Assembly: GCA_947167515.1 (NCBI GenBank)
Contig: CAMVIM010000024.1
Coordinates: forward strand, 1-56,969
Length of the DNA: 56,969 bases
Source of the DNA: an uncultured Prevotellaceae bacterium
GTDB lineage: Bacteria; Bacteroidota; Bacteroidia; Bacteroidales; Bacteroidaceae
Direction: 5' to 3'
How positions within the stretch are numbered: the first letter of the stretch is position 1; each line of letters opens with the position of its first letter. The notes under the pieces are model-generated. The model made no database searches, was not told the DNA's origin, and saw only the letters and a program-made list of their open reading frames with translations. The translations under genes were made by a program, and so were the position numbers. Of the stretch, positions 12,399-41,272 are shown piece by piece.

Positions 12399-12753
12399 TT
12401 ACAAATTCTGCGGAAACAAGACGCGAGAAGATGATTCCATCTCATGCAGATACAAAGCACCCCGGCTGAGTTCGTCCAGTCGGGGTGCTGCACTTCCATT
12501 TCCTCTATAGATGAGACTCCGTACAATATGCAATTGGTATGCTGTACAATATACAAATGAAACGGCATACCATTTGTATATGCAACGGCGTTGCCTTTAT
12601 GAGCCTATGCCCATAAAGCCCGCGAGCCTTGCTCCACTACCCCCATGAGCTTTACGGGTGTGTGGATGAAGAGGCATAACAATGAAAGGTTTACTCACCC
12701 ATCTCCACAGAAAAGGCGGAGGAGCACCGTTGAGTGCTCCTCCGCCTTTTCTG
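12399..12753. other. Gene-free, structured stretch between the antiporter gene and tmRNA
   Basis: No convincing ORF. It holds, in order, the antiporter terminator hairpin (12456-12489), two mutually exclusive hairpins around 12531-12579, the short palindrome CAACGGCGTTG at 12583-12593, a pair of competing stems that use the same CATAAAG strand (12595-12658), and the long tmRNA-end inverted repeat (12699-12762). It may be a decayed repeat element or a structured RNA; nothing matches a family I know. Confidence 0.6.
12456..12489 (+). terminator. Hairpin after the antiporter gene
   Basis: Perfect 9-bp GC-rich stem (12456-12464 with 12481-12489), 58 bases after the antiporter stop. There is no strong T run, only a pyrimidine-rich tail, so it may be a weak terminator or a 3'-end protecting hairpin. 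Confidence 0.6.
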
Positions 12754-27969: not shown

Positions 27970-28248
27970 TTACTTCGTATTAAGCCTATCTTTCAGAATC
28001 GCACTCATTTTATAGCCGACCGTTTTCTTAGGAGCAACCACCATATAAGTTTTCGTCGTAGGATTATAAATCTTGCGACTCGCTTTCTCACGCGGTTCAA
28101 ACGAACCAAATCCCTGTATCGACACCGAGTTGCCATCAGATATACCTTCCAGCACAGCATCGATGAGAGAGGAAGAAAGTTTCTTCACCTCGTCCATCCC
28201 GAAGTTTGTCTTCCGAGACAACTTTTCCAATAAATCCTTGTTTGTCAT
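27970..28248 (-). CDS. HU-family DNA-binding protein
   Basis: A 92-aa histone-like protein with the HU core: VSIQGFGSFEPREK near residue 43 and the arm region KIYNPTTKTYMVVAPKKT, then the C-terminal helix. It bends and compacts DNA. ATG start. It is 53 bases downstream of rimO and 1 base upstream of the HU-LysM fusion gene. Confidence 0.95.
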   Translation of the reverse strand: MTNKDLLEKLSRKTNFGMDEVKKLSSSLIDAVLEGISDGNSVSIQGFGSFEPREKASRKIYNPTTKTYMVVAPKKTVGYKMSAILKDRLNTK

Positions 28249-29668: not shown

Positions 29669-30625
29669 TTACTCTCCAAACAGACTCTCCACAAACGCCT
29701 TCCGATTGAATGCCTGCAAGTCCTCCATGCCCTCACCCAATCCGATGTAGCGAACAGGAATCTTGAACTGGTCGCTGATGCCGATGACCACACCACCCTT
29801 GGCAGTTCCGTCCAACTTCGTGATAGCCATCGAAGTGACTTCTGTCGCCTTCGTGAATTGCTTTGCCTGTTCAAAGGCATTCTGTCCTGTCGAACCATCC
29901 AGTATCAGCATCACGTCATCTGCCTCATAACCAGCAGCCTTCTTCACGGCATTCTTAATCTTCGTCAACTCATTCATCAAGCCCACCTTATTGTGCAGAC
30001 GACCCGCCGTATCAATCAGCACCACATCTGCACCATTTGCCTTCGCTGAGCTGACAGCATCGAAAGCCACAGCGGTAGGATCACTACCCATCTGCTGCTT
30101 CACCACTGGCACACCCACCCTTTCACCCCAGATGCAAATCTGCTCAACAGCAGCAGCACGGAACGTGTCGGCAGCACCGAGATACACCTTCAAGCCTGCC
30201 TGTTTGAACTGATAAGCCAACTTACCAATCGTGGTCGTCTTGCCCACACCATTCACACCCACCACCAAGATGATGTAAGGCTTGTGAGCCCCTTCGGGAA
30301 TCTGGAAACCTTCCGTATCATCCGTATTGTTTTCGGTCAACAGACCTGCAATCTCCTCACGCAGAATCCTGTTCAGTTCATCTGTACCCACATACTTGTC
30401 ACGAGCCACACGCTCCTCTATCCTGCGGATAATCTCCAACGTAGTGTCCACGCCCACATCACTCGTAATCAGCACCTCCTCCAGATTGTCCAGCACATCA
30501 TCATCCACTTTCGACTTACCAGCCACAGCACGGGCAATCTTGCCAAACACGCTTTCTTTCGTCTTTGCCAATCCGTTATCCAGCGTCTCCTTCTTCTTCT
30601 TGGAGAACATATCAAAAAATCCCAT
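29669..30625 (-). CDS. ftsY: Signal recognition particle receptor FtsY
   Basis: GTPase that docks SRP-ribosome complexes at the inner membrane. Residues about 1-100 form the charged N domain. The G domain shows G1 VGVNGVGKTTT near residue 115, the DTFRAAAVEQ segment near 145, G3 DTAGR near 195, and TKLDGTAKGG near 265. At 318 aa it lacks a long acidic A domain, as is usual outside enterobacteria. It has its own strong promoter (30715-30746). Confidence 0.97.
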   Translation of the reverse strand: MGFFDMFSKKKKETLDNGLAKTKESVFGKIARAVAGKSKVDDDVLDNLEEVLITSDVGVDTTLEIIRRIEERVARDKYVGTDELNRILREEIAGLLTENNTDDTEGFQIPEGAHKPYIILVVGVNGVGKTTTIGKLAYQFKQAGLKVYLGAADTFRAAAVEQICIWGERVGVPVVKQQMGSDPTAVAFDAVSSAKANGADVVLIDTAGRLHNKVGLMNELTKIKNAVKKAAGYEADDVMLILDGSTGQNAFEQAKQFTKATEVTSMAITKLDGTAKGGVVIGISDQFKIPVRYIGLGEGMEDLQAFNRKAFVESLFGE

Positions 30626-30714
30626 ATCTCTTTCCTTTTAATTCTTACTACTTATGATGCGATTCTTTCGTTCCGAAGTCATCCGCATAGGAACAGCTTC
30701 ACCTATTAAAGTTA

Positions 30715-30746
30715 CAAAGATACAGAGTTTCTGTAATAAAAACAAA
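30715..30746 (-). promoter_or_regulatory. Promoter of ftsY, overlapping the upstream terminator
   Basis: Minus-strand TATCTTTG at 30715-30722 and TTTG at 30743-30746, spacer 20. The -33 box lies inside the T tract of the terminator at 30743-30773. Confidence 0.85.
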
Positions 30747-30773
30747 AAAACCTCCCCAAAAATTGGAGAGGTT
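30743..30773 (-). terminator. Terminator after the rpmB-rpmG-DUF4295 genes
   Basis: A 10-bp stem with one mismatch (30749-30758 and 30764-30773) followed in the minus direction by a long T-rich tract. It lies 112 bases after the DUF4295 stop. T residues also follow on the plus strand, so it could work both ways. Confidence 0.85.
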
Positions 30774-30885
30774 CCATTTTTTTGCGTTGAACACCTAAAA
30801 TATGTCCAACAACCGTATGTTTTCAACGTTCCTCATCGACGTGTCAACCCACGAGTCGGCACCGTCAAATCAGAGGACTGTCCGA

Positions 30886-31038
30886 TTACTTCTTCAGATA
30901 ATCCTTCACCAACTCGGCAGGAATCATCTTCTCATCAAATGCATATGCACCAGTCTTAGGAGACTTGAACATCTTGATGACCTTCGTATAAGAACGACCA
31001 TCCTTGTTCTGGAGGGTTGCGACGGTTTTTTTTGCCAT
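30886..31038 (-). CDS. DUF4295 family small basic protein
   Basis: A 50-aa protein, starting MAKKTVATLQNKDGRSYTKV and ending ELVKDYLKK, with a TAA stop at 30886-30888. It is the small basic protein that follows rpmG in Bacteroidota; its role is unknown, but the position suggests ribosome association. It starts 9 bases after the rpmG stop. It is easily missed because it is short. Confidence 0.9.
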   Translation of the reverse strand: MAKKTVATLQNKDGRSYTKVIKMFKSPKTGAYAFDEKMIPAELVKDYLKK

Positions 31039-31047
31039 AGTCTAAAC

Positions 31048-31236
31048 TTATTTGATTTCCTTGTGCACAGTCATGCGCTTCAGGATGGGGTTATACTTCT
31101 TCAGCTCCAAACGGTCTGGAGTGTTCTTGCGGTTCTTTGTAGTGATGTATCTTGATGTGCCTGGAAGACCGCTATCCTTCATTTCTGTGCACTCGAGGAT
31201 GACCTGCACACGATTGCCTTTAGCTTTCTTTGCCAT
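31048..31236 (-). CDS. rpmG: 50S ribosomal protein L33
   Basis: A 62-aa bL33 protein, starting [18 protein letters not shown] and ending VHKEIK. It has the [20 protein letters not shown] core. It lacks the CxxC zinc motifs of the C+ form (only one Cys), so it is the zinc-independent type. It follows rpmB by 48 bases; the gap holds reiterated AATTGAAAA words. Confidence 0.97.
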
Positions 31237-31284
31237 AATTCTTCAATTTTTCAATTTTCCAATTTTTCAATTCTCTTCTGAAGA

Positions 31285-31545
31285 TTAGCCAATAACCTGG
31301 ATGTCTTTCCATTCGCAGTGACCCTTAGCGACAGCCTGCTTCAGAGCAGCGTCGAGACCAATGCGGTTGATGATACGCAAACCTGCGGCGCTCACCTTGA
31401 GCACAATCCAGCAATCTTCCTCTACATAGTAGAACTTCTTAGTGAACAGGTTGACGTCGAAACGTCTCTTTGTTCTGCGAAGTGAGTGAGACACGTTGTT
31501 GCCCACTACCGACTTCTTACCTGTAATCTGACAAATTTTTGACAT
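31285..31545 (-). CDS. rpmB: 50S ribosomal protein L28
   Basis: An 86-aa bL28 protein with the family start [11 protein letters not shown], then [10 protein letters not shown] and the C-terminal [13 protein letters not shown]. Only one Cys is visible in the N-terminal motif region, consistent with a C- form. ATG start. It leads the rpmB-rpmG-DUF4295 block. The 220-base leader towards tRNA-Arg has small hairpins but no clear known riboregulator. Confidence 0.97.
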
Positions 31546-31768
31546 TTTCTTATTATACTTTTTTAATTTTCAAATCTAATTTTACTTGGAGAAGTACAGG
31601 TCTTCACAGTTCCGGCAGGCCCGCAATGCCCACCTCGCGAAATTTGGAACGCTCAACCCTTTTTGTTTTTGAAAATTAGGGGTGTTTCTTATTATCCATC
31701 TAACAAATTCTCTTTTTCTCTTTCAGAACTGTAAGCAAGCTTCCGTTCTTCATTTCAAAGAGTCTTTG

Positions 31769-31842
31769 TGATCCGGTTGGGATTCGAACCCAAGACCCAC
31801 AGCTTAGAAGGCTGTTGCTCTATCCAGCTGAGCTACCGGACC
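31769..31842 (-). tRNA. tRNA-Arg (TCT)
   Basis: Acceptor stem GGTCCGG/CCGGATC, D arm AGCTCAGCTGGATAGAGC, anticodon TCT in the loop CTTCTAA, and T arm with GGTTCGAATCC. 74 nt, CCA not encoded. It reads AGA. A promoter lies about 115 bases upstream. Confidence 0.96.
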
Positions 31843-31954
31843 ATCCTCTCATGGACTTCTGTCCTTCTCTCAGGTCTCATCCACTCAGAGTTTTACGCAT
31901 GGCTCAGCCACACAAAACATCATGCACGGACATAGCCCACGCAATTTGCGGATG

Positions 31955-31986
31955 CAAAGGTACGCTTTTTCCTCGAACCACACAAA
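31955..31986 (-). promoter_or_regulatory. Promoter of tRNA-Arg
   Basis: Minus-strand TACCTTTG at 31955-31962 and TTTG at 31983-31986 with a 20-base spacer. The distance to the tRNA 5' end leaves a leader of roughly 105 bases. Confidence 0.75.
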
Positions 31987-32028
31987 TAAATTTCAAAATA
32001 TTTTTCTTGGTGAGACAATTTTTGTGTC

Positions 32029-32069
32029 AAAGAGAGTGAAAGCCACACAAAGCGACCTCCACTCTCTTT
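32029..32069 (-). terminator. Terminator after the VWA gene
   Basis: Perfect 10-bp stem (32029-32038 and 32060-32069) with a 21-nt loop, 39 bases after the VWA stop. Weak T-rich tails exist on both sides. Confidence 0.6.
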
Positions 32070-32107
32070 TATAAGACTGTCATTTGTCATTTATCATCCG
32101 ATTAATG

Positions 32108-32749
32108 TCAACTCCTTTCATCGTCATCGAAGAACTTGTCGGATTGCAAACGAGAGAAATCGCAACCTTCGCTCAGTTTGCTGTAGAAAGCGCTACGGGC
32201 CTTTTTCTCTTTCCGGAACATCTCTCTCGTGCCTTCGATGTCGGCATCAAAGTTCAGGCTGTGGTCTATGCCCATATCCTTGGCAACCGCCATGGCGTCT
32301 TGGTTAGCACCGATATAGGTAAAAAGCCAGTTACCCCTCTTCAGTTCCTCAACCAGCTGGAAGACACGTTGGTGATTCCACTCCATCGAGGAATTCTCAT
32401 AACCATCCGTGATGATGGTTACCAACACGTTGTCGCCCTTGTCGATATATTGACGCAGATGGGTGATGGAATTTCCCATTGCGTCGTAGAGCGGCGTGTT
32501 GTCGGTGGGCTGATAGTCGTTCTCGTTCAAGTCGGGCACCTTGGTGATGGGCATGCGGTCATAGACGGTGGAAATACGACGCCCGTTGAAGACCACCAGA
32601 CTGAACAGCTGTTCCTGATTGGGACTCTCCGCTTGTGCTGTACGGATGGTTTGAACCGTTTCCACCACACCTGCGATGGCTTCTCTGCGGATGGAATACA
32701 TGGAGCCAGAGGCATCCAGAACGATGAGGTTGTAAACTTTCTGTGTCAT
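32108..32749 (-). CDS. VWA-domain protein, TerY-like
   Basis: A 213-aa soluble protein that is almost entirely one VWA domain: MIDAS motif VLDASGSMYSIR near residue 9, the TPLYDAMGNSI threonine region near 83, and TIITDGYENSS near 111. There is no signal peptide or membrane segment, unlike BatA/B, and its sequence is closer to TerY-like proteins. It lies downstream of two unrecognised genes on the same strand. Its partner is unknown. Confidence 0.85.
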   Translation of the reverse strand: MTQKVYNLIVLDASGSMYSIRREAIAGVVETVQTIRTAQAESPNQEQLFSLVVFNGRRISTVYDRMPITKVPDLNENDYQPTDNTPLYDAMGNSITHLRQYIDKGDNVLVTIITDGYENSSMEWNHQRVFQLVEELKRGNWLFTYIGANQDAMAVAKDMGIDHSLNFDADIEGTREMFRKEKKARSAFYSKLSEGCDFSRLQSDKFFDDDERS

Positions 32750-32830
32750 GTCGCTTGAGATTTTAAGTGGTTAAATGTAATAAGTGATTAAAGTTTTGAC
32801 TTTGTCATGCTAAAGATGCAGAAGTGAGCA

Positions 32831-33247
32831 TTATGCCTTCTTTACATAAATGTAAGCCGGATACTTTCCCAGCACGAAGAGGGTGACGGGACAGAGCCAA
32901 ATCCTCTGAGTGAATCCGTCCAGCCCTCTCACCGCGTAGTGTGCTCCACCTGTGAGCGAGTGGTCGAGTCGGCGCAATTCGGCATAGCCTTGGAGTTTTT
33001 CCTGCTTGGAAGTGGGAATCACCTTGACGCGTGTTTCCACATCATCGTTGGAGAGGTAAGCACAGAGCAGGTCGGCGCCAGCCACCATCATCAGGTTGTG
33101 ATGTTCGAAAGGCCAGCCGGGGAAATCCACATACCAGCATCCGTCTGCCTCGTGGTTGAATTTCAGGTCATACTCGCGCTTCTTTCCGAATACGCTCTTC
33201 TGAATCAAAACTGCTGCGTTCTTCAAATCTTTCAATGAATAATCCAT
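32831..33247 (-). CDS. Unrecognised 138-aa protein
   Basis: A 138-aa soluble protein, starting MDYSLKDLKNAAVLIQKSVF, with aromatic-rich segments (CWYVDFPGWPFEHHNLMMVA) and no signal peptide. The ATG at 33247 is chosen because upstream in-frame sequence is promoter and terminator DNA. It has its own -7 box at 33293-33300, lies upstream of the VWA gene (81-base gap) and is probably co-transcribed with it. No family can be assigned. Confidence 0.8.
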   Translation of the reverse strand: MDYSLKDLKNAAVLIQKSVFGKKREYDLKFNHEADGCWYVDFPGWPFEHHNLMMVAGADLLCAYLSNDDVETRVKVIPTSKQEKLQGYAELRRLDHSLTGGAHYAVRGLDGFTQRIWLCPVTLFVLGKYPAYIYVKKA

Positions 33248-33292
33248 AATTAAAACAATTTTTAGAGGTTTGACAAAAAACTTTTGACGATG

Positions 33293-33300
33293 CAAAGTTA
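33293..33300 (-). promoter_or_regulatory. -7 box for the 138-aa protein and VWA gene
   Basis: Minus-strand TAACTTTG 46 bases before the ATG at 33247. No clear -33 TTTG is seen at the expected distance. Confidence 0.55.
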
Positions 33301-33324
33301 CTATATAATAGACTGCACATGAAA

Positions 33325-33365
33325 ATCCCTGCAAGCCTTGCAAACGTCGCAAGCCTTGCAGGGAT
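33325..33365 (-). terminator. Terminator after the 410-aa gene
   Basis: An inverted repeat with arms of about 17 bp and one mismatch inside the paired part, followed in the minus direction by ATTTTC. It is 29 bases after the stop of the gene at 33394-34626 and separates it from the promoter at 33293. Confidence 0.75.
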
Positions 33366-33393
33366 ACTGCTTATTTTATTATGGATAAGGCAA

Positions 33394-34626
33394 TTAACGG
33401 AAATTTTCCCAAACAATCAAGTCTTGAGGCAAAAGGATTTTCTTAGCTTCTCCCCTTTCACCAGTGATGTAGTAGTTGCGGGCGATGCTGTCGTCGAAAA
33501 CCCTCAGGAATGCCTGCTTGATTCGGGAGCATTTCTCGTTGATGGAGTTGCGTGTGGGGTCGGTCACATCGTCGATGCTCCTGCGGATGTCCTCACGGTT
33601 GTCGCGTCCCGAAATCATTTCGTACATGGAGAGGAGTTCCTTGCGGTAATCGGGCAGATAGGAAAACTTGATGCCTTCGGGATGGTGCAGATAGAGCAGG
33701 TAGATGGCTTTCGAGAGCGGAGGCATTTTGATTTCCACATTATTGTAATCGGGCAGGAAGATGCGTCCATAGCGCACATGCAGACGGCTCAGTTTCTGTG
33801 TGGGTTGGAAAAGCTGCTGAAGCGCCCATTCGCCCACCCCACTCTGGCGAAGACGTTCCACGAGCATCTGCACCTCACTCATCACGGCTTCTACATCCTC
33901 CTCCTGCGGCAACGAACGGCACTCGTCACAGCAAGCGTCATTTTCTCGAATGACCATCCTTTCAGAGTTGGAAGTCCTTCTATGTGGAGCTAGCCTCTCC
34001 TTGAAAGCCGACGTCAGCCTGCCGAACAGGGATGGTGTGGAAGGAGATTCCGCACACGCTTCTTCGCAAAACGCCTCTTCTATCTGCATTTGCTGAAGCT
34101 GTTCCTCTTCGTACCTCAGACGGTCAAATTGCCTATCATGTCTCCTGCCGAAGAAATCATCACTGACCCCATGAATGCGTATGTAGTTCTCCGCCATTTC
34201 GTAGGGTGACAGTGAGTAAACATCCGTCATGGGCGTGAACGCATAGATGTAGGTGTCCTCCTCGTCAAAATCCGCACCCTTATATTGAATCAGTCCGGGC
34301 TGAAGGCGTCTTTCGTCGAAGCCAGCAACGACATATTTCAACAGGTCACTATCACGGTAATGGCTGGCATAAGGAATGGCGGCATTCTCATCGGCATCGG
34401 GATTGAAATAGCGGTAAATCTTGCCGAGATCCATGTCGTGCGCAATCATCGGCAGGAAACAGAATTCCAGTCCGCCACGCCTAAACGCCTCCACAAGCAT
34501 GTCATAATGCTCATAGAGAATCTCATAATACTTTTTTACGCCAATGTTCATCGCATCAAAATAGATGACCACGTTGGTTTTGGGTTTGAACGGAAGTCGG
34601 TTTTTATAAAAGCTGATGTATTGCAT
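33394..34626 (-). CDS. Unrecognised 410-aa protein with possible C-terminal winged helix
   Basis: A soluble protein of 410 aa from the ATG at 34626 (a GTG lies two codons upstream). The N-terminal half (YFDAMNIGVKKYYEILYEHY near residue 25) is unlike families I know. A charged linker with a CCDEC cysteine group is near residue 235. The C-terminal 130 residues, from PPLSKAIYLLYLHHPEGI, have the spacing of an OmpR-like winged helix (a NSINEKCSRIKQAF recognition-helix-like segment, then YYITGERGEAKKI). That comparison is by eye. It is upstream of the 138-aa and VWA genes. Confidence 0.8.
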   Translation of the reverse strand: MQYISFYKNRLPFKPKTNVVIYFDAMNIGVKKYYEILYEHYDMLVEAFRRGGLEFCFLPMIAHDMDLGKIYRYFNPDADENAAIPYASHYRDSDLLKYVVAGFDERRLQPGLIQYKGADFDEEDTYIYAFTPMTDVYSLSPYEMAENYIRIHGVSDDFFGRRHDRQFDRLRYEEEQLQQMQIEEAFCEEACAESPSTPSLFGRLTSAFKERLAPHRRTSNSERMVIRENDACCDECRSLPQEEDVEAVMSEVQMLVERLRQSGVGEWALQQLFQPTQKLSRLHVRYGRIFLPDYNNVEIKMPPLSKAIYLLYLHHPEGIKFSYLPDYRKELLSMYEMISGRDNREDIRRSIDDVTDPTRNSINEKCSRIKQAFLRVFDDSIARNYYITGERGEAKKILLPQDLIVWENFR

Positions 34627-34696
34627 ATTCACTCAGTGTTGAAAAGTCCTATTTTATCTCTGCCACCTACAAAACGCCCCATCTTTTTCTTGTTTG

Positions 34697-34704
34697 CAAA
34701 GATA
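34697..34704 (-). promoter_or_regulatory. -7 box for the 410-aa gene
   Basis: Minus-strand TATCTTTG 71 bases before the ATG at 34626. The -33 element is not clear. Confidence 0.5.
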
Positions 34705-35002
34705 CGAAAAAAAGCATGCAACCACTACACATTTCATAGAAAAAACACACCCTTCCACTGCATTTTTTGTTTTCTGCGCTCTCATCCTCCCATCCAGAAA
34801 CCCCTCCATCACACTATGCTTGATGTCTCCACATACACAAACTTTCAATCTGCTATTTTTCACATTATTGAAATTCAGGGGAAAAGTCTTCCTCGTTCTC
34901 CCATTCGATGGTGTACCTTAAGCCTCCATTCCTTCTCTTTCAGAACCTTCAAGACTCCTTGCCGTAAGCTCCTATGGTGTGTATGGGTGGTCCTCTAAAG
35001 TA

Positions 35003-35153
35003 TTTAGCTTTGGAACAAAAAGTGATTTAGCTTTGGAACAAAAAGTGATTTAGCGTTGGGACACAAATGTATTCCAACGCTAAACTGAATCGTGTCCCAA
35101 CGCTAAATTAAAATTTGTAATAAGGCTAAATTGATTCTTATGCTAAAGCTAAA
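35003..35153. repeat. Mirrored array of seven 23-bp repeat units
   Basis: Units begin with TTTAGC. Three lie on the plus strand at 35003, 35026 and 35049; four on the minus strand start at 35084, 35107, 35130 and 35153. The period is exactly 23 bp in both halves. Units 1 and 2 are identical. The core is TTTAGCnTTGGnACA, and the two outer minus units are degenerate after TTTAGC. The two halves face each other, and the central pair forms an 11-bp perfect inverted repeat (35049-35059 and 35074-35084). It is not a CRISPR: the variable part is only about 8 bases. Confidence 0.93.
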
Positions 35154-35269
35154 TGCTTTAACATCTGTGGAAGACACAACGCTGGGGCATACTCCTACAC
35201 CGCATGGAACCGATGAAGGGAGAAGACGACACACAAAAAGGATAATCGGCATTTTTTTGATGAATTTCT

Positions 35270-35299
35270 TTTGTCGTACGTAAATAATCCGTACATTTG
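35270..35299 (+). promoter_or_regulatory. Promoter of the MBL-fold lipoprotein gene
   Basis: TTTG at 35270-35273, 18-base spacer, TACATTTG at 35292-35299, 27 bases before the ATG. Confidence 0.75.
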
Positions 35300-35325
35300 T
35301 CAGCACAAACCAAATATGTTACAAC

Positions 35326-36072
35326 ATGAAGAAGACAATCGCATCAATCATGGTGATGCTGGGGCTGGGTTCCTCGGCATGCAGCCAGACACCTCGGCAG
35401 CCGGAGGTGGACACCTTCGAGACGGAGAGTGGGAAAATGGTGAAGTTTCACGCGCTGGTGCATTCGAGCATCCGCATCGAGTATGGGGACATGGAGCTGT
35501 ACATCGACCCTGTCACCAAGTTGGGCAATCGCACCATCGACTACACCAGCATGCCTCAGGCGAACTTTATTTTCGTCACGCACGAGCATGGCGACCACTA
35601 CGACAAGGAGGCTATCAAGCGGCTGACGAAGGTGGGCACTCGGTTCATCACCAACCAGCGATGTGCCGACATGCAGGGCTATGGGCTTGTGATGAAGAAT
35701 GGCGACAAGGAAGACCTCAACTCGGGCATCAAGGTGGAGGCCGTACCTGCCTACAACACGTCGGAAGGGCGCACCCAGTTCCATCCCAAAGGACGTGACA
35801 ACGGCTACATCCTCACGCTTGACGGCTTGCGCATCTACATCGCAGGTGACACGGAGGACATTCCAGAAATAGCTGGCATACAAGACATTGACATTGCTTT
35901 CCTGCCTTGTAACCAGCCATACACCATGACTCCAGAGCAGCTCATCAGGGCTGCCCGCATCGTCAAACCCAAAGTGCTCTTCCCTTATCACTACGGACAG
36001 ACGGATGTGAGCACCCTACCTGCCTCGCTGAAGGCAGACGGGATTGACGTGAGAATCAGACATTACGAATAG
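35326..36072 (+). CDS. MBL-fold metallo-hydrolase lipoprotein
   Basis: A 248-aa metallo-beta-lactamase-fold hydrolase of the UlaG/YtnP-like group. The signal peptide ends in the lipobox-like SSAC near residue 19. The metal motif THEHGDHYD is near residue 83, a GDTED motif near 168 and a YHYG histidine near 222. Substrate unknown; export to the envelope is inferred from the signal peptide. Monocistronic, with its own promoter; convergent with the MFS gene. Confidence 0.9.
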   Translation: MKKTIASIMVMLGLGSSACSQTPRQPEVDTFETESGKMVKFHALVHSSIRIEYGDMELYIDPVTKLGNRTIDYTSMPQANFIFVTHEHGDHYDKEAIKRLTKVGTRFITNQRCADMQGYGLVMKNGDKEDLNSGIKVEAVPAYNTSEGRTQFHPKGRDNGYILTLDGLRIYIAGDTEDIPEIAGIQDIDIAFLPCNQPYTMTPEQLIRAARIVKPKVLFPYHYGQTDVSTLPASLKADGIDVRIRHYE

Positions 36073-36074
36073 TT

Positions 36075-36138
36075 TTTTCTTCGGCGACTTGTCGCAACAA
36101 TTCACGTTCTTCGACGACTTGCCGCTACATTTCACGTT
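36075..36138. repeat. Tandem 30-bp palindrome-containing repeat
   Basis: Two imperfect 30-base units start at 36079 and 36109 (CTTCGGCGACTTGTCGCAAC and CTTCGACGACTTGCCGCTAC, each ending TTCACGTT). The GCGAC/GTCGC arms form a small hairpin. The second unit runs into the 3' end of the MFS gene. A close relative lies at 41475-41510. Confidence 0.85.
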
Positions 36139-37301
36139 TTCTTGATGCTGTAGGTGATGCCGAGGCTGAGGGCATAGAGGGCTGCCAGCACGATGAAGAG
36201 CACCACGTAGTCAAGGCCGAGGGTGTTGACCAAGAGGTTGGAGAGCTGGTTGCCGCTGAGTCCTGCCCAAGCCCAAGCGGAGAGGGCAAGTCCGTGGATG
36301 GTGCTAATTTTCTCCATGCCGAACTTGCTCTGCAACAAGGTGGGCAACGTAGAGAATCCGCCGCCATAACCTGCGTTGACGGTCATGAGCATCACCACCA
36401 CAGGTACCAGAGTGTAGGACACAGAGGCCAAAGCCATCACAATCAGCGAGCTGGCAAAGATAATCTTGTAGATGGTCTCCTTGCGTTGGGTGTAGTCGGA
36501 GGACATCGAATAGAAGAAACGGCCAGCCGTATTGAAGAAGGCTGTGGCCGAGGCGAGCAAGGCGATGAAAGCCGTGCCAACACCGATGTCAACTGCGATG
36601 CTCTTCTCGAAGGCGATGAGGGCAAGGCCGCAGGTGATGTTCAGATAGAACACAATCCAAATCTTGATATAGGTGGGATTCTGCAGCACCCGGTAGTATT
36701 CCTGAATCTTGAAAGGTGTCTTGGGTTCCTTCCAATGGAGGGGTTTCTTGATGAGCAGAGCCGCCAATCCGATGCACACCACGGAGATGGCGCAGATGAG
36801 GGCAAGGGTGGTTTTCACGCCATAAGCCACGTTGCACCATTCGATGAAGGGTGAGAAGAGCACCTTGGAGAGTCCGAAGCCAGAAATGGCGATGCCCGTC
36901 GCCAGTCCCTTGTGTTCGCTAAACCACAGCATGAGGGTCTTGACGGGTGACAGATAGCCGATGCCCAACCCCACCCCCATCAGACATCCATAGCCCAACA
37001 TGAGGAGGTTGACATCCTTGAAGTTGATGGCAAGGATGGACACCTGCAACCCTGCTCCGAAGAAGAGTCCGGAAGTGATGGTGGCCAAGGTGACATTCTT
37101 CTCCACAAAGCGTCCGCCAAATGCTGCCGACATGCCGAGGAAGAAGATGGCCAAGGAGAAGGCGAACTCGATAGACGAGACAGGGCACTCCATTAGAGAG
37201 GCGATGTCTGCCTTGAGCAAACTCCAGCAATAAACGCTGCCGATGCAGGAGTGGATGAGCAAGGCTGGAATGGCAGCACGAAACCATTTGTTGTTGAGCA
37301 T
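36132..37301 (-). CDS. MFS transporter, oxalate/formate-antiporter-like (OFA)
   Basis: A 389-aa, 12-segment major facilitator protein. The N-terminal CIGSVYCWSLLKADI and GMGIGYLSPVKTLMLWF-like central segment (VGLGIGYLSPVKTLMLWF, near residue 115) are features of the OFA family, which moves small organic acids. The real substrate cannot be read. ATG start. Its stop codon lies inside a dispersed repeat. Confidence 0.88.
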   Translation of the reverse strand: MLNNKWFRAAIPALLIHSCIGSVYCWSLLKADIASLMECPVSSIEFAFSLAIFFLGMSAAFGGRFVEKNVTLATITSGLFFGAGLQVSILAINFKDVNLLMLGYGCLMGVGLGIGYLSPVKTLMLWFSEHKGLATGIAISGFGLSKVLFSPFIEWCNVAYGVKTTLALICAISVVCIGLAALLIKKPLHWKEPKTPFKIQEYYRVLQNPTYIKIWIVFYLNITCGLALIAFEKSIAVDIGVGTAFIALLASATAFFNTAGRFFYSMSSDYTQRKETIYKIIFASSLIVMALASVSYTLVPVVVMLMTVNAGYGGGFSTLPTLLQSKFGMEKISTIHGLALSAWAWAGLSGNQLSNLLVNTLGLDYVVLFIVLAALYALSLGITYSIKKT

Positions 37302-37387
37302 AGAGAGGAGAGTTTTTTATAAAAAATGTTGGCACCGACCCCTTTCTCGAGGCCTGTGCCAACAAAAGGTGTCCATTTCGTGATTCC

Positions 37388-38563
37388 TTACCCAATCAGC
37401 GCGTCTGCCAGCACTTTCAGGTCTTCAATCGTCTTGGCTTTCACGGTGGATTCAACGGTGACAAGTGGCTCGATGATGGTGATGTTCTTCATCGCTTCCA
37501 TCTGCTCGCGCATCTTCTTGCCTGACGCTGGTGCCCAAGTACCGTTCTCGACGAATGCCACCTTGCGATTCTGATAGGTTTTGATGCGCAGATGATTGAT
37601 GAAGTCCTCCATGATAGGCATGATGCCACCATCGTAAGTAGGTGCACAGAGCACCATGCGGTCATAACGGAAAGCATCTTCGACGGCTTCGTGCAGGTCA
37701 TCACGGGCAATGTCGGAGGTAGATACCTTCACATTGCTCTTTTCTTTGATGATGTCTGCCAACTTCAAAGCAGCCTGTGCCGTGTTGCCATGCAGAGAAC
37801 AGTAAGCAATAAAAATTCCCTCATTCTCAGGCTCATACTTGCTCCATGTGTCGTAGAGGCCGATGTAGTAGCCAAGGTCTTCGGAAAGAACAGGACCATG
37901 TAACGGACAAATCTGCTGGATGTCGAGCGTGGCAGCCTTCTTCAAAAGATTCTGCACCATCGCACCATACTTACCCACGATGTTGAAGTAGTAGCGACGA
38001 GCCTCACATGCCCATCCTTCATCGTCCTCTTCCTCCTTGCAAAGCGCACCAAACTTGCCGAAACCGTCGGCAGAGAAGAGTATCTTGCTCTTCTGGTCGT
38101 AAGTGACCATCACCTCTGGCCAATGCACCATCGGAGCCATGAAAAACTGCAAGGTGTGCTGTCCCAACGAGAGGGTTTCACCCTCCTTCACCACCTGAAT
38201 ACGTGCTGAGAAATCCGTCTCGAAGAAACGCTTGAACATCGCCACAGCCTTCTGCGAGCACACAGCCGTCATGTTGGGATATTTCTCCATGATGAACTGC
38301 ACGCTGCCCCCATGATCGGGTTCCAAATGCTGCACAATCAGATAGTCAGGTGTCTTACCTCCGAGTGCTGCCTCCAGGTTTTTCTCCCATTCAGCAGTCT
38401 TCGTGGCATCTACCGTATCCATGATGGCGACTTTCTCATCGTCAATCAGATAGGAGTTGTAGGACACACCCAGCGGCACGTCGTACTGACCTTCGAAGAG
38501 GTCTATGTCAAGGTCATCCACACCGATGTACTTCACATCCGGTGCAATCATGTCGTATTTCAT
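37388..38563 (-). CDS. Flavodiiron protein (FprA family, NO or O2 reductase)
   Basis: A 391-aa soluble enzyme that reduces oxygen or nitric oxide in anaerobes. The N-terminal metallo-beta-lactamase domain carries the diiron ligands HLEPDHGG (HxExDH, near residue 82); a second His region is MVHWPEVM near 145. The C-terminal flavodoxin domain begins EGIFIAYCSLHGNTAQAALK near residue 250. The ATG at 38563 is preferred; an upstream ORF extension is unsupported. It stands alone between the MFS gene and pgi. Confidence 0.94.
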   Translation of the reverse strand: MKYDMIAPDVKYIGVDDLDIDLFEGQYDVPLGVSYNSYLIDDEKVAIMDTVDATKTAEWEKNLEAALGGKTPDYLIVQHLEPDHGGSVQFIMEKYPNMTAVCSQKAVAMFKRFFETDFSARIQVVKEGETLSLGQHTLQFFMAPMVHWPEVMVTYDQKSKILFSADGFGKFGALCKEEEDDEGWACEARRYYFNIVGKYGAMVQNLLKKAATLDIQQICPLHGPVLSEDLGYYIGLYDTWSKYEPENEGIFIAYCSLHGNTAQAALKLADIIKEKSNVKVSTSDIARDDLHEAVEDAFRYDRMVLCAPTYDGGIMPIMEDFINHLRIKTYQNRKVAFVENGTWAPASGKKMREQMEAMKNITIIEPLVTVESTVKAKTIEDLKVLADALIG

Positions 38564-38638
38564 CTTTCTATCAATAATATTATATATTAATGTGTAAATT
38601 GTGTTTCTGCTCCTTCGCCTCCTTCTGAGGCTTGGAAA

Positions 38639-38744
38639 AACAATAATTACCAATAATTGGCTACGCCGAGCTGAAGGTTGACAATAATTTTATCCAATAA
38701 TATTATTGGAACCAATTTTTGGTAATTATTGGCAATTATTGTTT
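38639..38744. repeat. AT-rich inverted repeat before the flavodiiron gene
   Basis: Arms near 38639-38660 and 38722-38744 share AACAATAATTxCCAATAATT in inverse orientation. It occupies much of the 230-base gap between pgi (stop 38794) and the flavodiiron gene, with a small palindrome ATAATATTAT at 38695-38704 inside. No promoter box was found in it. Confidence 0.7.
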
Positions 38745-38793
38745 GAAAACGATGCGGCTTGCCGCATTACATCACAATTCGCTTCGTGTCACC

Positions 38794-40128
38794 TTACTTC
38801 AAGCGCTCCTGAATGGCTTTGCTCTCTGCCTCATATCCAGGCTTGTTGAGGAGGGCGAACATGTTCTTCTTGTAGGCCTCCACACCTGGCTGATTGAACG
38901 GATTGACACCGAGGATGAGACCTGAGATGCCACAACCCTTCTCGAAGAAGTAGATGAGTTGACCAATGTTGTACTCGTCGAGTTTCTCAATGCTGATCTT
39001 GATGTTGGGCACACCACCGTCCACATGAGCGAGTTGAGTGCCGAGTTCTGCCATCTTGTTCACTTCGTCGATGCGCTTGCCTGCGAGGAAGTTCAAGCCA
39101 TCGAGGTTTTCTGCATCAGAAGGAACAGCGAGAGAGGTGTTAGGCTTCTCTACAGAAATGACGGTTTCGAAGATGGTACGTTCGCCATCCTGAATCCATT
39201 GGCCCATCGAGTGGAGGTCAGTCGTGAGGTCGACAGATGCAGGGAAGATGCCCTTGCCGTCCTTACCCTCGCTCTCACCGTAGAGTTGCTTCCACCATTC
39301 ACCGAGGTTATGGAGTTTTGGCTGATAGTTCGCCATGATTTCAATCTTCTTGCCACTCTGATAGATGGCGTTGCGAGTAGCGGCATAAACAGCAGCAGGG
39401 TTCTCAGCACAAGGCACATCAAGTGCACATTGCTTCTCCATATCCTGTGCACCCTTCACGAGTGCCGCGATGTCATATCCAGCCACAGCGATAGGCAGCA
39501 AGCCTACAGGAGTCAGCACAGAGAAACGACCACCCACGTTGTCGGGGATGATGAAGGACTTGTAACCCTCCTTATCTGCAGTCGTGCGGGCAGCACCCTT
39601 CTTGGCATCCGTAATCGCCACAATCACCTTCTTTGCCTCGTCCTTGCCACGCTGGTCTTCACACATCTTCTTGAGGAGACGGAACGTGATGGCTGTCTCC
39701 GTTGTGGTGCCTGACTTCGAAATGTTGATGACACCAAACTTCACACCCTTCAGGTAGTCAATCAGCTCCGAGAGGTAGTCCTCGCCGATGTTGTTGCCTG
39801 CAAACAGGATGCGTGGAGTCTTCGAAGGCTTCAGCCATCCGAACGTGTTGCTCAGGGCATCAATCACCATGCGGGCACCCAGATAGGAGCCGCCAATACC
39901 AGCCACCACCACAGCTTCACAATTCTCCTGCAGCACCTTGGCCGTGGCATTCAACTCAGCAATAAACTCGGGGGTGATGGAACTTGGGAGGTGCATCCAT
40001 CCCAAGAAATCGTTACCAGCACAAGTGCCCTCTTCCAGAGCCTTCTGTGCAGCCTTCACCTGAGGCTCCAAAGCCTCAATCGCTCCTGCCTTCACAAACG
40101 AGGCAGCCTTCGTAATGTCAATTTTCAT
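38794..40128 (-). CDS. pgi: Glucose-6-phosphate isomerase
   Basis: Interconverts glucose-6-phosphate and fructose-6-phosphate. The 444-aa length is the short bacterial form. SIS domain features are visible: [16 protein letters not shown] near residue 78, [12 protein letters not shown] near 135 and the [14 protein letters not shown] signature near 200. ATG start. Last gene of lysS-gpsA-pgi; the 142-base gap to gpsA contains a C/G-rich inverted repeat. Confidence 0.97.
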
Positions 40129-40136
40129 AGTTAGAG

Positions 40137-40266
40137 CCCCCCGTCCCCCGAAGGGGGCGTGCCATTCGGTTGGGGGTAAAATGGCTTTATGGTTATTATT
40201 ATTTTTTGAAAATTCGATTGTTATTTTTACGCACCGCGTCAGTCCTCCCCCTTTGGGGGTTGGGGG
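40137..40266. repeat. C/G-rich inverted repeat between gpsA and pgi
   Basis: The two ends of the gap hold inverted GC blocks: CCCCCCGTCCCCCGAAGGGG near 40137-40158 and CTCCCCCTTTGGGGGTTGGG near 40247-40267, separated by an AT-rich middle. Each block is itself a short hairpin. The family looks related to the sequence inserted in the GH43 gene at 54499-54552. Confidence 0.75.
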
Positions 40267-40270
40267 GTTC

Positions 40271-41272
40271 CTATCTCAGCGAGTCACTCAATATCTTAAT
40301 CTCCACGCTGGGAGAAATCTTCTCGTAGAGGATGTTGTACACCGCATCCAGGATGGGCATGTTCACGTGATAGCGCTTGTTGAGGATTTTCATACAGTTG
40401 GTGCCGTAGTAACCCTCGGCAATCATTTCCATTTCCAGTTGCGCGGTCTTGACAGAATATCCCTGTCCAATCATCGTACCGAACACACGGTTGCGGGAGA
40501 AGTTCGAGTACATCGTCACGAGCAGGTCGCCCAGATAGGCAGAATCACTCACGTGGCGGTCTTCGGGTTGAACGGCACGGAGGAAACGCTTCATCTCCTG
40601 CAGGGCATTCGACACCAGCACCGCCTGGAAGTTGTCACCCAGCTTCAAGCCGTGACAGATGCCCGCCGCGATAGCATAGACGTTCTTCAGCACCGACGAA
40701 TACTCAATTCCCTCAATATCGGGCGACACGTTGGTCTTCACATACTTATTGGCCAGCAAGTCGGCCACCACCTGCGCATTCTCCAAATCACGGCATCCTA
40801 CGGTCAAATAGCACAAACGGTCGAGTGCCACTTCCTCAGCATGACTGGGGCCACCGATGCACGCCACCTGTTCCTCAGGCACGTTGTACTGCCGCTGGAA
40901 GTATCGGCTCACGGTGAGGCTTTCCTCGGGCACGATACCCTTGATGGCCGTCACCACCATCTTCTCCCTCATGTTCGTCTTCAGCTTCTTCAGGTGGTTC
41001 TTGATGTAGGGCGACGGAATGACGAAGATGAGCGTGTCGTTGTTCTTCACCACCTCGTTCAGGTCGCTGGAGAAGGTGATTCTGTCCACATCGAAATGCA
41101 CACCCGTCAGGTAGGCAGGGTTGTGGTGCATGCGCTTAAAGTCCTCGATGCGGTCATCCCTGCGCATATACCACGTTATTTTTTCTTCATGGTGCATGAC
41201 AATCTTGGCAATAGCCGTTGCCCAGCTACCACCTCCCAAAACTGCCACTCTGCCACAAGATTGAAACTGCAT
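40271..41272 (-). CDS. gpsA: Glycerol-3-phosphate dehydrogenase [NAD(P)+]
   Basis: Makes sn-glycerol-3-phosphate for phospholipid synthesis. The N-terminal Rossmann motif is [14 protein letters not shown] near residue 9. The family signature [11 protein letters not shown] is near 105, GPSHAEEVA near 140, and the [13 protein letters not shown] segment near 195 contains the catalytic lysine. Length 333 aa, ATG start. It is between lysS and pgi. Confidence 0.97.

What the first reader, a model, noticed from the sequence alone, without database searches (positions are those of the whole stretch)
35003..35153. Mirrored array of seven 23-bp units facing a central palindrome
Seen directly: seven units beginning TTTAGC, three on the plus strand (35003, 35026, 35049) and four on the minus strand (35084, 35107, 35130, 35153), every step exactly 23 bp. 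Units 1-2 are identical; the outer minus units have drifted. The halves meet in a 36-bp palindrome. An exact 23-bp period with inversion about a centre suits a binding array for a dimeric protein, a recombination or replication site, or RNA with a mirrored stem. I know no described family with this layout.
Basis: seen in the sequence. Interest (0 to 1): 0.78.

Follow-up and report, generated by a model that had tools for sequence, protein, structure and literature searches.

The report
Mirrored DNA-binding-site array for HU-like protein
A block of seven 23-letter DNA repeats, arranged as two halves facing each other, belongs to a repeated family found in several related bacteria and is most likely a set of docking sites for a pair of HU-like DNA-binding proteins whose genes can carry the same kind of block just upstream.

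Summary
In detail: units start at 35003, 35026, 35049 (+) and 35084, 35107, 35130, 35153 (-), step 23, inner start-to-start distance 35. It is one of a family: 31 mirrored TTTRGC-type arrays tabulated in 6 genomes of the genus keep the 23-bp step and the 35-bp centre while unit counts vary. Some arrays lie just upstream of tandem HU-HIG (PF18291) genes. A 23-bp periodic array lies upstream of 13 of 20 such pairs, against 0 of 18 single HU-HIG genes and 7 of 169 random windows; without four pairs reached from arrays, 9 of 16. Unit follows protein: the seven ORF1s with TTTRGC units form one clade; other pairs carry unrelated 23-bp units, in one genome also dispersed and mirrored. Best explanation: a cooperative operator array for a cognate, probably autoregulated HU-HIG pair; gene-less copies such as the window's are dispersed copies of that regulatory region. 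Binding is inferred, not shown. A selfish, BrickBuilt-like repeat is the main rival; RNA hairpin and recombination readings are weaker.

The parts
35002..35154 (.). whole mirrored array, 3 + 4 units of 23 bp
   Evidence: similar to the C41, C6, C1 and C4 copies in the same genome
35003..35025 (+). plus unit 1
35026..35048 (+). plus unit 2, identical to unit 1
35049..35071 (+). plus unit 3, inner; its 15-bp core is 35049-35063
35049..35084 (.). central 36-bp near-palindrome: 15-bp core, 6 bp, 15-bp core; start-to-start 35
35062..35084 (-). minus unit 1, inner; its core is 35070-35084
35085..35107 (-). minus unit 2
35108..35130 (-). minus unit 3, degenerate (TTTAGCCTTATTACA); the same variant stands third from the centre in the C41 copy
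35131..35153 (-). minus unit 4, degenerate
33394..34632 (-). left neighbour ORF (412 aa, no Pfam match at E 0.01), reading away from the array
35326..36072 (+). right neighbour ORF, metallo-beta-lactamase fold (PF13483, PF12706), reading away from the array

Best explanation
The array is a cooperative binding-site array (operator) for a dedicated, sequence-specific, IHF-like pair of HU-HIG proteins encoded elsewhere in the same genome (contig C4, about 162.79-163.66 kb). That gene pair has its own 4+4 array of the same units about 70 bp upstream. Inferred mechanism: a dimer, perhaps a heterodimer of ORF1 and ORF2, occupies the central inverted pair (core centres 21 bp apart, two helical turns). 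Further dimers load on the direct 23-bp units on either side, wrapping the DNA and controlling the promoter next to the array, which gives autoregulation at the gene pair. The window's copy is a gene-less dispersed copy, able in principle to bring the divergent flanking genes under HU-HIG control or to titrate the protein. Shown: the array, its family, the kept geometry, the position upstream of HU-HIG pairs, unit type following protein clade, and copying of the leader region in two related genomes, in G014 and on C14. Inferred: binding, autoregulation, any effect at the window.
For: 23-bp step and centre 35 in the 31 mirrored TTTRGC arrays tabulated (anchors were set by me). HU-HIG (PF18291) genes adjacent to some arrays. 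23-bp periodicity (score 28 or more) in 600 bp upstream of 13 of 20 HU-HIG pairs against 0 of 18 single HU-HIG genes and 7 of 169 random windows; excluding the four pairs reached from arrays, 9 of 16; tests run before one negative pair was added gave p=1e-5 (13 of 19) and 1.3e-4 (9 of 15). Of two genomes where I expected arrays from the protein alone, G007 had one. Close ORF1 relatives (48% identity or more) in 6 of 45 genus genomes; pattern-detected arrays in 5 of 45, all among those 6 (p=5e-6). ORF1s with TTTRGC units are one clade, support 100/99. A TAnnTTTG box within 90 bp on the gene side of 8 of 8 mirrored pair-linked arrays. An unrelated unit found only through an HU-HIG pair (G014) is also dispersed and mirrored in that genome. 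Dispersed arrays in G017/G026 share flanks with the L140 HU-HIG leader. The ORF1 profile matches HU and IHF chains in the PDB.
Against: No binding data. The window copy has no HU-HIG gene beside it and no TAnnTTTG box next to it. 7 of 20 pairs show no 23-bp array at the cut-off (G035:C35, G000:C2, G013:C5, G009:C40, G037:C56, G037:C40; G039:C90). G013, where I also expected an array, scored 23. The cut-off of 28 was chosen after seeing the scores; at 26 it is 14 of 20 pairs and 1 of 18 singles (G000:C3, score 27, period 23 ranked first). In G014 and G000:C72 another period scores as high or higher. In G020 the dispersed units (TTTAGCGTTGGGACA) differ from the unit upstream of its close pair (TTTGGCTTGAATACA), though that genome is 81% complete. 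Several pair-linked arrays are direct-only. Neighbours of the dispersed arrays whose ORFs I listed share no clear theme. The 48% identity line was set after seeing the scores.
Confidence: 0.6

Rival explanations
1. A selfish, MITE-like dispersed minisatellite: a non-autonomous element that carries a 23-bp repeat and is copied by an unidentified transposase or by recombination. The repeats have no host function, and the HU-HIG link is hitch-hiking.
For: Multi-copy and copied with flanks: C41 and C6 share 422 bp at 85%; C14 is a 99% copy over 322 bp of the C72 array region without the gene; G014 copies carry truncated ORF1 starts. BrickBuilt of Porphyromonas gingivalis is a 23-nt precedent (PMC4596501).
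Against: I found no consistent ends or terminal inverted repeats (not searched exhaustively). The link to HU-HIG pairs recurs with unrelated unit sequences. Unit type follows protein clade. The centre is kept while counts drift.
Confidence: 0.22
2. A transcribed long hairpin (RNA stem, attenuator or double-stranded RNA source).
For: The + strand of 34996-35160 folds at -68.3 kcal/mol, z -11.1, 0 of 200 shuffles as low; the - strand at -57.7, z -9.9.
Against: Any mirrored array would fold so. Mirror-partner units are hardly more alike than non-partners (core 0.730 against 0.698, tails 0.424 against 0.413), while same-side neighbours are more alike (0.818, 0.519). One-sided or direct-only arrays exist (L062 with 1+6, L092, L136). 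The only Rfam match is far below its gathering score.
Confidence: 0.07
3. A site for recombination, replication or chromosome segregation, used by a protein other than HU-HIG.
For: Core-6 bp-core looks like a tyrosine-recombinase core site and the arrays like iterons (recalled resemblance). Several copies per genome. One array locus (L057) has a tyrosine-recombinase-like ORF nearby (my reading).
Against: In the loci whose ORFs I listed, no recombinase or initiator recurs. HU-HIG is the only recurrent neighbour found.
Confidence: 0.08

Closest known systems
BrickBuilt minisatellite MITE of Porphyromonas gingivalis (PMC4596501; outline with abstract, first two of nine parts of the text, section 7 part 1 and section 10 read)
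   Same: 23-nt period without spacers, latter half of the unit less conserved, 19 intergenic copies in ATCC 33277, unit number varies between strains at one locus, one copy next to a PF00216 (HU-family) gene, promoter activity in both directions in E. coli
   Different: described in what I read as direct repeats with leader and tail, no mirrored plan; unit AGAYCATARTATCCTCTCRTRTG unrelated; IS5-type terminal inverted repeats not seen here; no HU-HIG pair system described in what I read
IHF/HU binding sites and IHF-like heterodimers (recalled)
   Same: two paralogous HU-family genes, profile match to HU and IHF, a centre of about 35 bp like an IHF footprint (recalled)
   Different: arrays of many phased sites in mirrored order are not typical of IHF (recalled); HU-HIG has an N-terminal extension (AF2 model)
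Plasmid partition operons with upstream centromere repeats, such as parC of R1 (recalled)
   Same: repeat array directly upstream of the candidate binding protein's own genes
   Different: on chromosomal contigs, dispersed, no motor ATPase noticed next to the pairs whose ORFs I listed

Membership tests
TTTRGC mirrored-array family linked to HU-HIG pairs (defined here) | 23-bp step and 35-bp inner start-to-start distance | tested here: met
TTTRGC mirrored-array family linked to HU-HIG pairs (defined here) | HU-HIG gene of the matching clade in the same genome | tested here: met
   G000:C4
TTTRGC mirrored-array family linked to HU-HIG pairs (defined here) | HU-HIG gene pair beside this copy | tested here: not met
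   tblastn of nine HU-HIG proteins against window 30001-41000 gave nothing at E 0.05
TTTRGC mirrored-array family linked to HU-HIG pairs (defined here) | protein binds the units | not testable with these tools
   needs EMSA or DAP-seq
BrickBuilt MITE | 23-nt repeat, intergenic, multi-copy | tested here: met
   window copy intergenic; copies elsewhere in the genome
BrickBuilt MITE | unit consensus AGAYCATARTATCCTCTCRTRTG | tested here: not met
   window units differ; 0 of 393 order genomes, own genome included, match the tandem form at 3 mismatches
BrickBuilt MITE | terminal inverted repeats like GAGACCTTTGCA | tested here: not met
   within 500 bp, 2 of 35 arrays (L061, L094) have a site at 2 mismatches; not the window
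BrickBuilt MITE | direct repeats | tested here: not met
   mirrored
Known RNA family (Rfam 15) | covariance model match above gathering score | tested here: not met
   only match up to E 1 is MIR7533, 28.3 bits against a gathering score of 230
REP element with RAYT transposase | RAYT gene in the genome | not tested
   no search was made

The most novel reading that the evidence does not exclude
Each tandem HU-HIG pair in this genus is a private, sequence-specific IHF-like heterodimer with its own 23-bp 'word'. The pair and its array form an autoregulated cassette, and copies of the array spread through the chromosome as nucleation sites, giving one cell several orthogonal nucleoid or regulatory codes that evolve new words.
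Probability: 0.3. Interest if true: 0.82.

Novelty: new variant of a known kind. Interest (0 to 1): 0.62.

Why it matters
HU-HIG genes occur in every one of the 45 genus genomes searched, and the paper searches listed nothing on their DNA targets (the library lacks most subscription papers). A defined array of phased sites next to its candidate binding protein makes that directly testable. If true, it would show HU-fold proteins gaining sequence specificity and diverging into several private recognition codes within one genome, and would give a mechanistic reason for a 23-bp period in dispersed minisatellites.

Tried and rejected
Looser DNA pattern in other collections: genome contigs gave 20 stretches. 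Six belong to two genus genomes already known (G020 and G035, by equal contig lengths). One search read 15 of the 20 plus the single viral contigs stretch: one of the 15 is from G035, the rest show direct 23-bp minisatellites or low-complexity repeats with other units. No mirrored half appeared, but that script would miss a lone opposite unit. These were dropped.

Empty-site test: the right neighbour gene was followed into 45 genomes (35 matched, own included). I compared 30 loci (own included) by BLAST and read six upstream stretches. G017 has another gene between the two flanks; no clean empty site was seen, so no target-site duplication could be read.

Metallo-beta-lactamase-fold genes flank three of the first five arrays (window, L011, L012). 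I took this as coincidence.

Capsule or antiterminator context (L057, L059, L060) was noted but is not general.

Geometry alone: a score of 31 or more for 23/35 occurs 3 times in 105 kb of unselected genus DNA (mean 0.86, maximum 3, over 56 other geometries) and 0 times in 103 kb around single HU-HIG genes. It is not significant there, and single hits (L209, L218, L228) are not claimed. For unrelated units the '35' depends on where the unit is taken to start, so only the 23-bp period and the mirrored order are compared across unit types.

Rows dropped or doubtful in the pair count: G017:C43, G017:C61 and G012:C155 were left out (contig starts). G037:C56 and C40 were counted as negatives although another HU-HIG piece lies upstream at the contig end. 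G000:C72 was counted as a pair although only one gene is on the contig. Of 20 single-gene stretches fetched, two (L184, L190) were dropped for short upstream DNA.

BrickBuilt was sought in 393 order genomes without a hit; P. gingivalis may not be among them.

Full report
What is there. The array at 35002-35154 is as described: three plus units and four minus units, 23 bp apart within each half, with the inner starts 35 bp apart. The central 36 bp is 15-bp core, 6 bp, inverted 15-bp core; 13 of 15 arm positions match. It lies between two ORFs that read away from it (33394-34632 on the minus strand, no Pfam match; 35326-36072 on the plus strand, metallo-beta-lactamase fold). Eight core matches at up to 2 mismatches, seven of them the array, compare with 1.42 expected and none of 100 shuffles; the mirrored score of 41 compares with none of 28 or more in 20 first-order shuffles of the window. 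Rfam gives only one far sub-threshold match.

It is one of a family. In the same genome, arrays of the same kind lie on contigs C1, C4, C6 and C41 and, degenerate, at the start of C16; a second subtype (TTTAGCTTGATTACA) lies on C2, C23 and C25. A double-unit pattern matched 8 of 101 genomes, of which five have a single hit that I judged chance. A looser three-unit pattern matched 6 of 45 genomes of the genus, of which 5 hold arrays: G000, G020, G035, G017, G026 (I did not take the single G024 hit for an array). In the 31 mirrored TTTRGC arrays that I tabulated, in six genomes, the step is 23 and the distance 35 was the best inner distance, or second only to 58 (35 + 23), in every one, while units per half run from 1 to 10 by the counting rule used. 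Two further arrays (L091, L092) have no centre. At the same locus in G017 and G026 the unit number differs (L093 and L095, L090 and L098), so arrays grow and shrink while the centre stays.

The partner. Four of the loci (L010, L084, L087, L092) shared about 0.6-0.9 kb of neighbouring DNA: two tandem HU-HIG genes (PF18291 in L010). The first protein, searched in 45 genus genomes, matched in all 45, and its best matches come as tandem pairs. From this I expected arrays in two genomes where the DNA pattern had found none, G007 and G013: G007:C55 has one (3+2), G013:C5 shows none above background. G020:C14 and G026:C38 also carry TTTRGC arrays upstream of pairs. Other pairs carry 23-bp arrays with unrelated units. 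With one statistic (best 46-bp window at period 23, score 28 or more, 600 bp upstream), 13 of 20 pairs are positive against 0 of 18 single HU-HIG genes and 7 of 169 random 600-bp windows. Four of the 13 had been reached from arrays; without them it is 9 of 16. The cut-off was set after seeing the scores; at 26 it would be 14 of 20 and 1 of 18 (G000:C3, score 27). The tests were run before one negative pair was added (9 of 15 against 0 of 18, p=1.3e-4; 13 of 19, p=1e-5). Negatives: G035:C35, G000:C2, G013:C5, G009:C40 (score 26), G037:C56, G037:C40, G039:C90. The two G037 cases are poor tests, since another HU-HIG piece sits upstream at the contig end. In G014:C51 and G000:C72 a period other than 23 scores higher or equal.

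Unit follows protein. The seven ORF1 proteins with TTTRGC units form one clade of the 19 compared, support 100/99. Among 45 genomes, 6 hold ORF1 at 48% identity or more to the C4 protein, and the 5 pattern-positive array genomes are among them (p=5e-6; the line was drawn after seeing the scores). Outside the genus, matches to the ORF1 profile are fewer and weaker: 42 of 301 family genomes reach E 1e-15, 28 of them outside the window's genus, and no adjacent pair is listed among those 28 at that threshold, 4 of 294 other order genomes reach 1e-12. The ORF1 profile finds HU and IHF chains in the PDB (best E 2.4e-6); the predicted model (pLDDT 85, pTM 0.64) shows two strands before the HU-like part.

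An independent second case. The unit upstream of the G014 pair (TGACTTCCGCACAGAC...), found only through the protein, was then searched in G014 and found at four further places. Three of these are mirrored with the same step; the fourth holds a run of N. Two copies carry a truncated start of ORF1 (47 and 58 aa at 94-97% identity), one only the first eight codons, close to the array. In G017 and G026 eight dispersed arrays were aligned with the leader of the HU-HIG operon in L140: by eye, seven share the distal flank and six the gene-side flank, including the region of its TTAACTTTGCACGG box, which is degenerate in the copies. In the window's own genome, C14 carries a 99% copy over 322 bp of the C72 array region without the gene. 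So dispersed arrays are, where recent enough to tell, copies of the regulatory region of HU-HIG genes. A box of the form TAnnTTTG (the Bacteroidetes -7 element, recalled) lies within 90 bp on the gene side of 8 of 8 mirrored pair-linked arrays; over both sides of 35 arrays it is 16 of 70 against 8 of 204 control windows. The window copy has none.

Mechanism. The simplest reading is an operator: an HU-fold dimer binds the 15-bp core; two inverted cores with centres 21 bp apart give a symmetrical nucleation site; direct units at 23 bp extend it on either side. Conservation in 265 units is concentrated at positions 1-3, 5-6, 8 and 13-15, about one helical turn apart, with a variable tail at 16-23, as expected for DNA contacts. 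Mirror partners are hardly more alike than non-partners (core 0.730, n=77, against 0.698, n=233; tail 0.424 against 0.413), whereas same-side neighbours are (0.818; 0.519; n=227), so halves seem to grow by tandem duplication and the stem is not evidently maintained. The RNA stem is nevertheless very stable when folded, which speaks for that rival. Binding, heterodimer formation, wrapping and regulation of the window's neighbours are inferred.

Compared with what is known. BrickBuilt of P. gingivalis (PMC4596501; outline with abstract, first two of nine parts of the text, section 7 part 1 and section 10 read) is the nearest described repeat that I found: 23 nt, intergenic, 19 copies, variable number, one copy beside a PF00216 gene, promoter activity. 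It has another unit, IS5-type ends and no mirrored plan in what I read. Membership fails on unit, ends and plan; the likeness in period is striking and untested. A paper that I recall as the source of the HU-HIG name (Burroughs and colleagues 2017) is not held. Searches for HU-HIG or PF18291, for HU proteins with upstream repeats in Bacteroidetes, and for Prevotella repeats listed nothing on this by title and abstract start; the library lacks most subscription papers, so absence is weak.

Limits. G020 contradicts simple pairing of unit and gene (dispersed TTTAGCGTTGGGACA, pair-linked TTTGGCTTGAATACA). The '35' cannot be compared across unrelated units, and geometry alone in unselected DNA is not significant. 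Interest is set at 0.62: a well supported new family with a named candidate partner, whose central claim, binding, still has to be shown.

Noticed in passing
window 12513-12594: Second candidate 2+2 mirrored 23-bp array between ORFs, units like GCAACGCCGTTGCATATACAAAT; similar sequence in the same genome near C17:7845, C28:24260, C30:21711 and C6:113496. Other axes score higher than 35 there, so it may be a separate family.
   Followed up: partly
window 27970-28248 (minus strand): A 92-aa ORF that reads like a canonical HU protein lies about 7 kb left of the array (my reading; not tested for a link).
   Followed up: no
L262 1982-2086 (G000:C5, about 95.6 kb): Another 23-bp mirrored array with unit ACACGCCCCATGTAGCAACTGCT; its best axis is of even spacing.
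   Followed up: no
L014 1962-1984 (G000:C5, about 37.46 kb): A lone outer unit with a left flank like that of the C1 array, next to a sequence that I read as resembling a KilA-N-type gene: a possible truncated copy.
   Followed up: no
L057, L059, L060 (G020): Arrays close to NusG/UpxY-like antiterminator ORFs and polysaccharide genes (my reading of ORF translations); may be chance or a regulatory link to capsule loci.
   Followed up: no
L084 456-2230 (G035:C32): The array plus HU-HIG pair lies beside ORFs that look like Cas6 and a WYL-type regulator (my reading).
   Followed up: no
L143, L144 (G017:C43, C61): HU-HIG pairs at contig starts with repeats of period 14, 21, 28 upstream instead of 23.
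   Followed up: no
L149, L146 and L134, upstream of the HU-HIG genes: Distal flanks of these loci look alike by eye: a G-rich stretch (TAGGGGG), then an ATATATTATATA tract, then a CGCACGG- or CCGCACGA-like motif; possibly the other end of a mobile unit.
   Followed up: no
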